Of a DNA stretch of 5,971 nt, positions 3,067 through 5,971 are shown one piece after another. Origin of the DNA: Desulfobacterales bacterium (GTDB lineage: Bacteria; Desulfobacterota; Desulfobacteria; Desulfobacterales; JAHEIW01). The position numbers and the translations under genes are program-made. The notes under the pieces were generated by a model. The model saw nothing but the letters and a program-made list of their open reading frames with translations, searched no databases and was not told the DNA's origin. Positions within the stretch are counted from its first letter, which is position 1. Every line of letters starts with the position of its first letter. The stretch spans positions 1 through 5,971 of the forward strand of contig JAQYWI010000270.1 in NCBI GenBank assembly GCA_030145015.1, in the 5' to 3' direction.

Positions 3067-3348
3067 ATGGATTATCCTTGTTACATAGATTTTTATAAGA
3101 AGCAGGTAGATAGGTCGGAGGAAGAGCTTTTTGTCTGTCCATTTTGCTCTAACGATTTATCCCCTCTAAAAAGGAAAGAGGAAGGCCGGAGACAATTCGT
3201 AACCGAGATTTGCCCGCAATGTAAGAATTTTGTGACATTAGATCTTTATTGCGGAATCGCGCTGAAACCATTTAAGAGAAAGGATTTAATTGCTATATTC
3301 GTCATTTTATGCTGCGTATCTGCATATCTTATACTCATATTAATCTAA
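3067..3348 (+). CDS. Small zinc-ribbon-like protein with a C-terminal membrane anchor
   Basis: Family not recognised. The 93-residue protein has two CxxC pairs, CPFC at 24-27 and CPQC at 49-52, spaced as in a zinc ribbon. Two further cysteines (C5, C62) follow no clear pattern. A strongly hydrophobic stretch from about 74 to 93 (LIAIFVILCCVSAYLILILI) ends the protein and is preceded by the basic KPFKRK. This predicts a tail anchor with the metal-binding domain in the cytoplasm. The ATG comes one base after the hutI stop with only a weak GGAA (3056-3059) as ribosome binding site, so translation probably depends on ribosomes leaving hutI. Base composition is more AT-rich than hutI, which may indicate a separate origin. 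Nothing in the sequence ties its role to histidine breakdown. The zinc-ribbon and anchor reading is well supported, the function unknown. Confidence 0.72.
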   Translation: MDYPCYIDFYKKQVDRSEEELFVCPFCSNDLSPLKRKEEGRRQFVTEICPQCKNFVTLDLYCGIALKPFKRKDLIAIFVILCCVSAYLILILI

Positions 3349-3426: not shown

Positions 3427-3675
3427 ATAGACCTATCCCTTTGAAATGGCTATTCACTCAAAATCATGGTCGGTAATTTTATCTTTATGATCTATATCGA
3501 AACCCACAATTTCTTTGGACTTTGTCTTTCGGCTATCTATACAATCGACATCGGCCAGGATCTGTTTAGAATTGGCAATCGCAATGCAAAAGTAAATTTT
3601 CCGATATAAAAGGATCAAAAACACAATAAAAAATCCTGACATTCGTTGTAAGCGTTTAGTCCATTGCCAGATTAA

Positions 3676-3729
3676 GCCGGAAAACGACCCGTCATGGCAT
3701 CAGGAGAACTATTCAGGCCGAAAAACGAC
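3676..3729 (+). repeat. Pair of 13-nt direct repeats
   Basis: GCCGGAAAACGAC (3676-3688) and GCCGAAAAACGAC (3717-3729) differ at one base, and their starts are 41 bp apart, about four helical turns. They lie about 130-180 bp upstream of the nifS-like gene. They could be two binding sites for one regulator on the same DNA face, or a small duplication. Confidence 0.45.
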
Positions 3730-3858: not shown

Positions 3859-4998
3859 ATGCCCAAACCCATCTACCTTGATTATAACGCCACCACCCCG
3901 CATGACCCGGAAGTCATTGCGGCCATGCGGCCTTTCTTCGAAGAAGAATTCGGCAACCCGTCGAGTTCCCATTATTACGGCACCCAACCCAAACGGGCCG
4001 TCATCAAAGCTCGCACGCAAATTGCGGCCCTTCTAAACTGCCGGCCCGAAGAAATTATTTTCACCAGTGGGGGAACGGAATCAAACAATTTCGCCATTAA
4101 AGGCTGTGCCCAAGCCTTCCGTCATAAAGGCAATCATATCATTACCTCCCAAATTGAACATCCGGCTGTCATCGAGGTGTGCAATTTTTTGAAAACCACG
4201 GGTTATGAAGTCACCTATTTGCCGGTCGACGAATTCGGCTTGATACAGATAGAAGATCTGAAAGCGGCCATAAAAAAAGAAACCATTCTGATATCCATCA
4301 TGCACACCAACAATGAGGTCGGCAGCGCTCAGCCGATTGAAGAAATCTCAAAACTGGCCAAAAAACACGACATTGTTTTTCATACCGATGCGGCCCAGTC
4401 CGTGGGGAAAATGCCGGTTGATGTCAACCGCCCGGAGGTGGATCTGCTGTCGATCGCCGGCCATAAGGTTTACGCACCCAAGGGTGTCGGCGCCCTTTAC
4501 ATTCGACAGGATTTGGCACCGGCCAAATTGATGCACGGTGCCGGCCAGGAAATGGCCGTCCGGCCCGGGACCGAAAATGTGCTTGAAATTGTCGGGTTGG
4601 GTATGGCCTGTGAAATTGCCGCACGCGATCTGGAAAAAAACATGACCCATATGCGGACGATGCGCGACAGGCTTTTTGAGGGCATTAAAAATGAAGGTGA
4701 TCAGGTGAAACTCAACGGGCATCCGCAAAAACGACTGCCCAACACGTTGAGCATTTCATTTTTGGGTTTGGAGGCCAATCGCATTCTGGATGCAATTGGA
4801 ACCGAGGTGGCCGCTTCCGCCGGCGCTGCCTGTCATTCCGGCACGGTACAAATTTCCGACGTGCTCAAAGCCATGCATGTTCCCCTGGAGTGGGCCAAGG
4901 GCACCTTAAGGTTAACCACCGGGCGCATGACCACCGCAGCGGATATCGATAAAGCGGTTGAGGTTATCTGCGCGGCCGTAAAAAACCTTAAGAGCTAA
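3859..4998 (+). CDS. Cysteine desulfurase / selenocysteine lyase-like PLP enzyme (NifS family)
   Basis: A cytoplasmic class V aminotransferase-fold enzyme that takes sulfur from cysteine, or selenium from selenocysteine, as an enzyme-bound persulfide or selenide, leaving alanine. Visible features over 379 residues: DYNATTP (8-14), GNPSSSH (32-38), TSGGTESNN (69-77), the PLP-stacking H101 in IEHPAV, D177 and Q180 in HTDAAQS, the Schiff-base lysine K203 in AGHKVYAPKG, RPGTEN (235-240), and the catalytic cysteine C325 in SAGAACHSG. The cysteine loop has the group I (NifS/IscS) length, but its sequence is GAACHS rather than the usual GSACTS. GAACHS is what I recall from animal selenocysteine lyase, so selenium chemistry is possible. 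No iscU, nifU, iscR or selD is adjacent, so it is not part of a standard Fe-S operon. It may serve Fe-S assembly, tRNA thiolation or selenium supply. The C-terminus is shorter than IscS (404 residues). Confidence 0.93.
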   Translation: MPKPIYLDYNATTPHDPEVIAAMRPFFEEEFGNPSSSHYYGTQPKRAVIKARTQIAALLNCRPEEIIFTSGGTESNNFAIKGCAQAFRHKGNHIITSQIEHPAVIEVCNFLKTTGYEVTYLPVDEFGLIQIEDLKAAIKKETILISIMHTNNEVGSAQPIEEISKLAKKHDIVFHTDAAQSVGKMPVDVNRPEVDLLSIAGHKVYAPKGVGALYIRQDLAPAKLMHGAGQEMAVRPGTENVLEIVGLGMACEIAARDLEKNMTHMRTMRDRLFEGIKNEGDQVKLNGHPQKRLPNTLSISFLGLEANRILDAIGTEVAASAGAACHSGTVQISDVLKAMHVPLEWAKGTLRLTTGRMTTAADIDKAVEVICAAVKNLKS

Positions 4999-5071: not shown

Positions 5072-5110
5072 TAGAACCCGTCACCAAAAGGGTGGCTTAG
5101 TGTTCAGGGC
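5072..5110 (+). repeat. Left terminal inverted repeat of the MITE-like element
   Basis: Starts TAGAACCC, then a CCAAAAGGG core and CTTAGTG. Compared with the reverse complement of 5233-5270 it has five mismatches and one extra base (A5083). Confidence 0.7.
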
Positions 5111-5119
5111 AAGGCGCAG

Positions 5120-5170
5120 ACCGATTCAAAAGCGGAGCGTACACGGAGTACGTGAGCATTTTGAATCGGT
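5120..5170. repeat. Compound palindrome inside the MITE-like element
   Basis: ACCGATTCAAAA (5120-5131) and TTTTGAATCGGT (5159-5170) are perfect 12-bp inverted arms. Between them CGTAC (5138-5142) pairs with GTACG (5148-5152) around ACGGA, and GC (5132-5133) can pair with GC (5156-5157). The result is a long two-tier hairpin in DNA or RNA. No T-run follows, so it is not a classical terminator, although it could slow or end transcription from both convergent genes. Confidence 0.75.
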
Positions 5171-5210
5171 TTGATTCATTCCTTAATATTTATATAATTA
5201 GATGTGAAAT

Positions 5211-5224
5211 CCCGATTTAGCGGG
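5211..5224 (-). terminator. Weak candidate hairpin downstream of the minus-strand gene
   Basis: Read on the minus strand, CCCG, loop CTAAAT, CGGG and then ATTTCA follow the gene by about 45 nt. The four-pair stem and poor T-run make it marginal. The larger palindrome further on may matter more. Confidence 0.2.
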
Positions 5225-5232
5225 GCAACACG

Positions 5233-5270
5233 GCCATGGACACTAAGACGCCCTTTTGGGATGGGTTCTA
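5233..5270 (-). repeat. Right terminal inverted repeat of the MITE-like element
   Basis: Inverted partner of 5072-5110. Its outermost three bases on the minus strand, TAG at 5270-5268, are also the stop codon of the convergent gene. Confidence 0.7.
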
Positions 5271-5971
5271 CTTTTTCTTTGGGGATAGCAGGAACAGATT
5301 TACAAACTTCGGATCAAGTTCTTCCGGGGCCACCCGTCCGTATTCGCTTTCAATTTCGTTAAATAGATCCGCAAAAGTTTGGCCCAGCCGATCGGTAATT
5401 TCATAATCTTTCAGACCCGTTTTTGCCGCCAGCCAATTTAAAAACGAGGCTTTCATTTCCACAGGAATTTTTCTAGCGGGTTCGCTGCCGGAATCCGCCC
5501 GGCCCGGCAGCAATTTTTTAAAAAAAGGATGAAACTGTTTAACCGTCAAGGGCTTTAATAGAGTACTTTTTAATCCGCGATATTGTCGGGCCCAGAGCGT
5601 AAGAAGGAGATTTTTGTAAGTCAGAAAGCCATATTGGGAGACAGAACCGATCTTGATGTTCATCAACGCGAGCAAATCATCAACGCCAACAATCTGATTA
5701 AAAATCTTTTCGATTTTACGGATATCTTCAAGGGTCGCAAATTCCCTGTATAAAACGCCGGTTTTATAATTATCATAAAAAAGCGGCTTTTTAACCAAAA
5801 GCCCGCCGACGATACCCAGCCATTGTTCGCCCCAGAAAGTCAAGCGCAGTCCCGCCCGGGCAAACCAGCATTTTGAAAGCCATTTTTCCGCTCGCCATTT
5901 CAGCTTGAGTGCGCGCCCAAAACCGACCCGGAATATATCTTGAAGTGCATAACGGGTAATCAGGACGGCCG
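5268..5971 (-). CDS. Hypothetical protein, C-terminal part (start outside the window)
   Basis: The minus-strand frame is open from the right edge to TAG at 5270-5268, giving 233 complete C-terminal residues. A TTG at 5843-5841 is in frame but has no need to be the start, since coding continues upstream (ALQDIFRVGFGRALKLKWRAEKW). The visible protein is basic and rich in aromatic and leucine residues, with predicted helices, no clear membrane span and no catalytic motif I recognise. The segment FRVGFGRALKLK and the overall look faintly recall large uncharacterised deltaproteobacterial proteins of the DUF6178 type; this is a recollection and weak. The C-terminus ends LLSPKKK, and its stop codon lies in the inverted repeat of the neighbouring MITE-like element, so the natural end may have been altered. 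It converges on the nifS-like gene and is transcribed independently. Confidence 0.8.
   Translation of the reverse strand, partial: AVLITRYALQDIFRVGFGRALKLKWRAEKWLSKCWFARAGLRLTFWGEQWLGIVGGLLVKKPLFYDNYKTGVLYREFATLEDIRKIEKIFNQIVGVDDLLALMNIKIGSVSQYGFLTYKNLLLTLWARQYRGLKSTLLKPLTVKQFHPFFKKLLPGRADSGSEPARKIPVEMKASFLNWLAAKTGLKDYEITDRLGQTFADLFNEIESEYGRVAPEELDPKFVNLFLLSPKKK

What the first reader, a model, noticed from the sequence alone, without database searches (positions are those of the whole stretch)
5072..5270. Undescribed MITE-like element between two convergent genes
Imperfect 38-39-bp terminal inverted repeats (33 of 39 positions identical), TA at both outer ends, about 199 bp in length and no coding capacity together fit a non-autonomous TA-targeting element. 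None of the surrounding genes explains this symmetry.
Basis: partly seen in the sequence, partly recalled or inferred. Interest (0 to 1): 0.7.

Follow-up and report, generated by a model that had tools for sequence, protein, structure and literature searches.

The report
Hairpin mobile repeat anchored at stop codons
A 199-base hairpin at the stop codon of a gene belongs to a family of small mobile repeats in Desulfobacterales that share their ends with an ordinary insertion sequence, and more than half of the copies examined in its nearest relatives sit exactly at a gene's stop codon in one orientation.

Summary
The inverted-repeat element at 5072-5270 is real and is one copy of a high-copy family: 41 and 42 matches (capped) in the two nearest relatives, 34 of 146 genomes of the order. 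The MITE reading is largely right, the IS630 partner is not: an IS5-family insertion sequence with matching ends (18 of 21 bases) lies in one related genome and a truncated one in an element-rich genome, while DDE_3 passes its cut-off in 1 of 8 genomes. Three features go beyond a plain MITE. (1) In 62 of 106 copies the right end coincides with the neighbouring gene's stop codon, against 1 of 106 at the left end; orthologues without a detected element stop at the same codon in 15 of 22 comparisons. (2) The interior is a conserved, strongly covarying hairpin. (3) Its mismatches are biased, in two genome sets, as if pairing were kept on the strand antisense to the anchored gene; the ends show no bias. 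Copies differ by an optional ~50-base module. BOX elements and GTAG REPs are published precedents for repeats supplying stop codons. What places the element at stop codons is unresolved.

The parts
5072..5270 (+). whole element (long form with one module); 'element + orientation' in this report
5072..5092 (+). left terminal inverted repeat (outer stem P1), TAGAACCC...; resembles the ends of an IS5-family insertion sequence in relatives
5251..5270 (-). right terminal inverted repeat (P1), read TAGAACCC... on the minus strand
5093..5110 (+). left arm of the second stem (P2)
5233..5250 (+). right arm of the second stem (P2)
5120..5170 (+). core hairpin (P3/P4) with conserved apical sequence GCGGAGCGTACACG..AGTACGTGAGCA
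5173..5224 (+). optional ~50-base module (limits approximate), absent from short copies and present or absent at the same site in orthologous copies
5268..5270 (-). stop codon (TAG) of the DUF6178 gene, identical with the right end of the element
5268..5969 (-). DUF6178 gene (3' part in window), the anchored gene
3859..4998 (+). aminotransferase class V (cysteine desulfurase-like) gene, convergent, stop 73 bases from the element

Best explanation
The element is a MITE-type non-autonomous element of Desulfobacterales: terminal repeats like those of an IS5-family (NCBIfam transpos_IS5_3) insertion sequence enclose a conserved hairpin core and an optional module. An IS5-type transposase most likely moved it, at TA (inferred from shared ends and one empty site). 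Shown: copies in the nearest relatives lie mostly at the stop codon of a gene, in one orientation, so that the element begins (gene sense) with the stop codon; most orthologues without a detected element stop at the same codon. Shown: the stems covary. Inferred: copies elsewhere or in the other orientation are rarely kept, or rarely made, because the core acts as a strand-specific folded structure; the strand bias of its mismatches points to the strand antisense to the anchored gene. How the stop codon is chosen (target choice or selection) is not shown.
For: Copies: 41, 42, 13 and 1 matches in 4 of 11 genomes; 34 of 146 genomes of the order. TIR pattern with up to 3 mismatches in 7 of 7 genomes; reversed-pattern control 0 in five of them and 1-2 in two. 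Shared ends: 842-bp IS in L306 with DUF4096 and DDE_Tnp_1 ORFs, both over the cut-off of NCBIfam transpos_IS5_3; both its ends, and one IS end each in G009 and G001, match the element consensus at 18 of 21. Empty site with one TA. Stop codon: 62 of 106 copies at the right end against 1 of 106 at the left; same stop position in 33 of 43 cross-genome comparisons: 18 of 21 where the other genome has an element, 15 of 22 where none was detected; in other genomes 20 of 45 at the 5' end against 2 of 45 at the 3' end. Covariation: 30 of 39 pairs with two-sided changes, score 0.404 against 0.144 shuffled, 0 of 500. Strand bias in the core: 7 G.U against 25 A.C (41 copies) and 10 against 37 (31 copies of other genomes); ends 11 against 15 and 10 against 12.
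Against: One clean empty site only; a single TA there fits a TA duplication or an element-borne TA equally. The base after the distal TA is a purine in 18 of 30 copies, little more than half, so there is no clear sign of a split TAA/TAG stop. The IS relative was found in 4 of 11 genomes and not in G011 or G039, which are element-rich. The 4 IS ends tested, at 3 loci, are not at stops of ORFs of 90 codons or more, so the transposase alone does not explain the anchoring. Many copies are not anchored: 44 of 106 by the criterion, 25 of 45 in other genomes. By alignment column the strand bias is weaker: 18 columns against 8 in each set, p 0.076. Arm-to-arm copying could produce part of the covariation (mirrored insert in L163).
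Confidence: 0.72

Rival explanations
1. A REP-like element moved as single-stranded DNA by a Y1 (RAYT-type) transposase; orientation and hairpin structure follow from strand-specific recognition.
For: Y1_Tnp over its cut-off in 8 of 8 genomes; strand bias of mismatches in the core; GTAG REPs are reported often to supply a TAG stop (one passage of PMC3733652).
Against: None of 12 fetched Y1 loci (of 56 Y1 places; flanks of 1500 bases, some partly masked) carries the element nearby (best E 1.5); the ends match a DDE-type IS; no constant 5' tetranucleotide is visible in the copies.
Confidence: 0.15
2. A vertically inherited 3'-end RNA structure (terminator, mRNA stabiliser or translation-linked hairpin), not now mobile.
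For: Covariation; copies kept at the same stop codon in several genome pairs; reported ERIC and REP effects on mRNA and ribosomes (passages).
Against: 22 of 43 cross-genome comparisons show no detected element in the other genome; IS-like ends; the mismatch bias points to the antisense strand, not the mRNA strand; no Rfam match at E up to 1.
Confidence: 0.1
3. IS630-type MITE.
For: TA ends and size.
Against: DDE_3 over its cut-off in 1 of 8 genomes; ends shared with an IS5-family element.
Confidence: 0.02
4. Chance or a private palindrome of this locus.
For: None found.
Against: z -9.25 and dozens of copies in relatives.
Confidence: 0.005

Closest known systems
BOX elements of Streptococcus pneumoniae
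   Same: Small, modular, folded repeats with tandem inner modules; 36 CDS whose 3' end and stop codon are supplied by BOX, without strong evidence of truncation (PMC3049150: sections 6 and 9 read; passages).
   Different: Different sequence and host phylum (sequences not compared here); no base-exact, one-orientation anchoring is described in the sections read.
Correia/NEMIS and ERIC elements
   Same: Small TA-flanked imperfect palindromes with size forms (recalled, not from a call); the ERIC effect on mRNA depends on orientation (passages of PMC2229807).
   Different: Host groups differ; sequences were not compared here.
GTAG REPs / REPINs with RAYT transposases
   Same: Palindromic repeats in high copy (abstract of PMC3733652 in the listing); termini often supply TAG stops (one passage of PMC3733652).
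   Different: Our ends look like TIRs of a DDE-type IS; REPs are 20-40 bp (abstract in the listing); no link to Y1 genes seen.
IS5-family insertion sequences (transpos_IS5_3)
   Same: Terminal repeats, 18 of 21 bases.
   Different: The element has no ORF of 60 aa and carries the hairpin core instead; the IS ends tested (4 at 3 loci) are not at stop codons.
RUP (IS630-Spn1-linked MITE)
   Same: Small element with TIRs and TA target (passages of PMC2229807).
   Different: Linked to IS630 in that review; no stop-codon anchoring in the passages seen.

Membership tests
MITE (non-autonomous TIR element) | short, no transposase ORF | tested here: met
   199 bp, no ORF of 60 aa or more inside
MITE (non-autonomous TIR element) | terminal inverted repeats | tested here: met
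   33 of 39 columns (read)
MITE (non-autonomous TIR element) | many dispersed copies | tested here: met
   in relatives; own genome not held
MITE (non-autonomous TIR element) | target duplication / empty sites | tested here: inconclusive
   one clean empty site with a single TA among 25 mapped pairs; the TA may be duplicated or element-borne
MITE (non-autonomous TIR element) | ends shared with an autonomous element | tested here: met
   IS5-family IS, 18 of 21 bases at 4 ends; whether that IS is active is unknown
MITE (non-autonomous TIR element) | moved in trans by that transposase | not testable with these tools
   needs a transposition assay
IS630-linked MITE | IS630-type transposase in the element-bearing genomes | tested here: not met
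   DDE_3 over its cut-off in 1 of 8 genomes; some genomes are incomplete MAGs
REP/REPIN of a RAYT | copies flank RAYT genes | tested here: inconclusive
   none near 12 fetched Y1 loci of 56 places listed
REP/REPIN of a RAYT | constant 5' tag (GTAG or CGTC) | tested here: not met
   no constant tag by inspection of 41 aligned copies
Known Rfam RNA family | match to a covariance model | tested here: not met
   none at gathering, none at E up to 1
BOX | boxA/boxB/boxC sequences | not tested
   no BOX sequence was compared; the likeness is architectural

The most novel reading that the evidence does not exclude
The hairpin core, not the transposase, places the element: insertion or fixation is coupled to reading-frame recognition at translation stop codons, and the folded antisense strand (RNA or single-stranded DNA) is the active form. 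This would be a mobile element that seeks stop codons in the reading frame.
Probability: 0.12. Interest if true: 0.88.

Novelty: new variant of a known kind. Interest (0 to 1): 0.62.

Why it matters
Small repeats that supply stop codons have been reported for BOX and GTAG REPs. Here the anchoring is precise to the base, one-sided and seen in several genomes of an order, with a candidate IS identified and orthologous genes with and without a detected element. That makes it a natural system to ask whether mobile elements can be targeted to, or selected at, translation stops, and what a hairpin that contains the stop codon does to gene expression.

Tried and rejected
IS630 partner: not supported. 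Y1/RAYT link: not seen near 12 Y1 loci. Longer elements by pairing end models over 1.80 Mb of fetched loci: 29 pairs above 330 bp were listed; they were not followed up one by one, and at least one (L217) is two neighbouring copies. The IS was then found from an inverted pair 842 bp apart in the list, which was itself cut. Rfam: nothing. Plasmids and phages: no match to one short copy at E up to 1e-5. Integron-like arrays: a 356-bp series in G228 is a tandem duplication with no cassette-like genes that I could see in the two stretches read. Automatic end-finding misplaced ends for many copies and was set aside; it gave 37 right against 0 left of 80 delimited copies (ORF of 90 codons or more). 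Purine after the distal TA: 18 of 30, no clear support for a split stop. Most flank alignments for empty sites failed because intergenic DNA is too diverged.

Dropped rows: 106 of 110 core matches (E up to 1e-5) went into. 41 of the 43 sequences went into alignment A1. For one search I used 64 of the 157 matches (109.9 bits or more) and 45 of the 74 (second-strand reports, repeats of one place and weak ones left out; one kept copy has a masked 5' end). For the strand count on other genomes I used 31 of the 74. The A1 copies were chosen for being at stop codons, so the count for G009/G011/G039 (47 of 64, 0 of 64 at the other end) is biased; (other genomes) were not chosen that way, though some of the latter loci came from a TIR pattern starting TAG.

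Literature searches in whose listings I saw no title or abstract start that names this family: (no paper held all terms). Geobacter 'multicopy nucleotide sequences' (PMC2700814, passages only) are catalogued in supplements that I could not read, so a relative may be listed there.

Full report
Observation. The element of 5072-5270 is as described: 33 of 39 columns of inverted repeat with one gap (read), TA at both ends, z -9.25 as single-stranded DNA, no ORF of 60 aa inside. It lies between an aminotransferase class V gene (3859-4998, +) and a DUF6178 gene (minus strand). The right three bases of the element are the DUF6178 stop codon.

Family. No genome is held for the window. The aminotransferase gene led to relatives; the nearest by that protein are L009 (78%), L017 (76%) and L001 (73%), two titled Desulfobacterales and one Deltaproteobacteria; they lie in G009, G011 and G001. 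The element matched 4 of 11 such genomes: 41, 42, 13 and 1 places, with only 40 candidates scored in G009 and in G011. In the order of G009, 34 of 146 genomes matched with at most 5 candidates scored each. A covariance model matched 27 of 247 genomes of the phylum at E up to 1e-4 with 12 candidates scored each and strict filters, and 0 of 15 genomes reached through loci titled as other groups at E up to 0.01. Distant matches keep short common pieces, so an older, wider family is likely; of the 30 fetched loci, several of the weaker ones are not at stop codons, and the weak matches were not checked one by one.

Anatomy. Many copies are short forms near 148 bp or long forms near 199 bp that add a ~50-bp module; one copy has several modules in tandem (L152) and some carry an inverted module on the left. 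Orthologous copies differ by the module at the same place (L238 against L155, L229 against L140). From outside in: terminal repeats P1, an internal loop that is not symmetrical, P2, and a hairpin P3/P4 with a conserved apical sequence.

Mobility. In one orthologous comparison (L218 in G039, L168 in G009) the flanks close up on a single TA; it was the only clean case of 25 mapped pairs. The TIR pattern occurs with up to 3 mismatches in 7 of 7 genomes tested, with 0 control matches in five and 1-2 in two. An inverted pair 842 bp apart in that list encloses an insertion sequence (L306 1348-2189, in G076) with two overlapping ORFs: DUF4096 and DDE_Tnp_1 by Pfam, both over the cut-off of NCBIfam transpos_IS5_3. 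A relative of its DDE part occurs in 4 of 11 genomes (G076, G001, G009, G133). In element-rich G009 the IS runs to the contig end and starts TAGAACCTATCTCAAAA. Four IS ends match the element consensus at 18 of 21 bases. DDE_3 (IS630) passes its cut-off in 1 of 8 genomes. I therefore read the element as a MITE of an IS5-family transposase. That the transposase moves it is inferred.

Stop codons. I took 106 copies: 53 from G039, 26 from G011, 26 from G009 and the window's, in stretches picked around known copies. Of these, 74 have a right neighbour whose 3' end faces the element (ORFs of 100 codons or more), and 62 of the 74 stop within -24 to +1 of the right end, the spread coming largely from how ends were drawn; at the left end 50 have a facing 3' end and 1 lies in that range. 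Read in gene sense, 75 of 106 have an ORF of 90 codons or more ending in or near the element's start (TAA 44, TAG 24, TGA 7); in most of the lines the stop is the first codon of the element, in a few it lies deeper or before it. Orthologues in other genomes: 43 comparisons, some gene pairs counted in both directions. With an element also found there, 18 of 21 have the stop at the same codon; with no core match there, 15 of 22 do and 3 more differ by one codon. 'No core match' is not always empty: three of the 15 are comparisons of the window's own site, where G009 has a diverged relative at exactly the stop (L009 6202-6352, 56 bits), G011 what looks like its right half and G001 nothing seen; a fourth (L141) has a short P1-like palindrome. 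With the covariance model, in other genomes of the order, 20 of 45 copies have the stop of an ORF of 90 codons at the 5' end (-4 to +6) and 2 of 45 at the 3' end (-4 to +10). The four IS ends tested at three loci are not at such stops.

Structure. On 41 short copies, 39 pairs: 92.9% of cells paired against 78.7% shuffled; 30 pairs with two-sided changes against 17.7; covariation 0.404 against 0.144; 0 of 500 shuffles reach any of the five measures, and slid structures give 0.06-0.11. The shuffles ignore kinship. In P1 the covariation may only reflect that both ends must suit one transposase, or arm-to-arm copying; L163 has the same GC-rich insert in both arms while its orthologue L239 has none. 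In the core, mismatches are strand-biased: in gene sense G.U 7 against A.C 25 in the 41 copies and 10 against 37 in 31 copies from other genomes, while P1 gives 11 against 15 and 10 against 12. By sequence, 17 against 3 and 18 against 3 have more A.C; by column over all stems it is 18 against 8 in each set, p 0.076. A.C in one strand is G.U in the other, so pairing seems kept on the strand antisense to the anchored gene. Shared descent and mutation bias are not excluded.

Comparison with print. BOX supplies the stop codon of 36 CDS in S. pneumoniae without strong evidence of truncation (PMC3049150, sections 6 and 9 read). GTAG REPs 'often provide' a TAG stop (PMC3733652, one passage). A Coxiella MITE lies at the 3' end of one gene next to its stop (PMC5896051, passages). 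ERIC acts on mRNA in an orientation-dependent way (PMC2229807, passages), and REPs within 15 nt of a stop are reported to stall ribosomes (PMC12306157, passages). So the kind is known; the family, the IS5 link, the base-exact one-sided anchoring and the strand bias were not seen in the searches named in Tried and rejected.

Verdict. A new family and a new variant of the MITE/REP/BOX kind. The identity is well supported; the cause of the stop-codon anchoring is open.

Noticed in passing
L009 6202-6352; L017 after 6134: At the same DUF6178 stop codon G009 carries a diverged relative of the hairpin (56 bits) and G011 what looks like its right half.
   Followed up: partly
L141 near 3612-3691: The orthologue of the L227 site has only a short P1-like palindrome at the stop codon (TAAAAGTGGTTTTAAAACCACTTTTTA).
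   Followed up: no
L163 near 2370-2660, against L239: A GC-rich small palindrome (CCCGCCTGCGGCGGACAGG) stands at mirrored places in both arms of L163 and in neither arm of its orthologue; a like insert sits on one side in several G009 copies.
   Followed up: no
L302 3669-4745 and 12629-14010 (G228): Distant relatives of the hairpin lie in 356-bp tandem repeats.
   Followed up: partly
L307 about 1256-1676 (G011) and L308 286-375 (G011): Similar ends enclose a variant of about 418 bp with other contents and a 90-bp mini form.
   Followed up: no
window 3067-3348: 93-aa ORF with two CxxC pairs and a hydrophobic C-terminus, no Pfam match.
   Followed up: no
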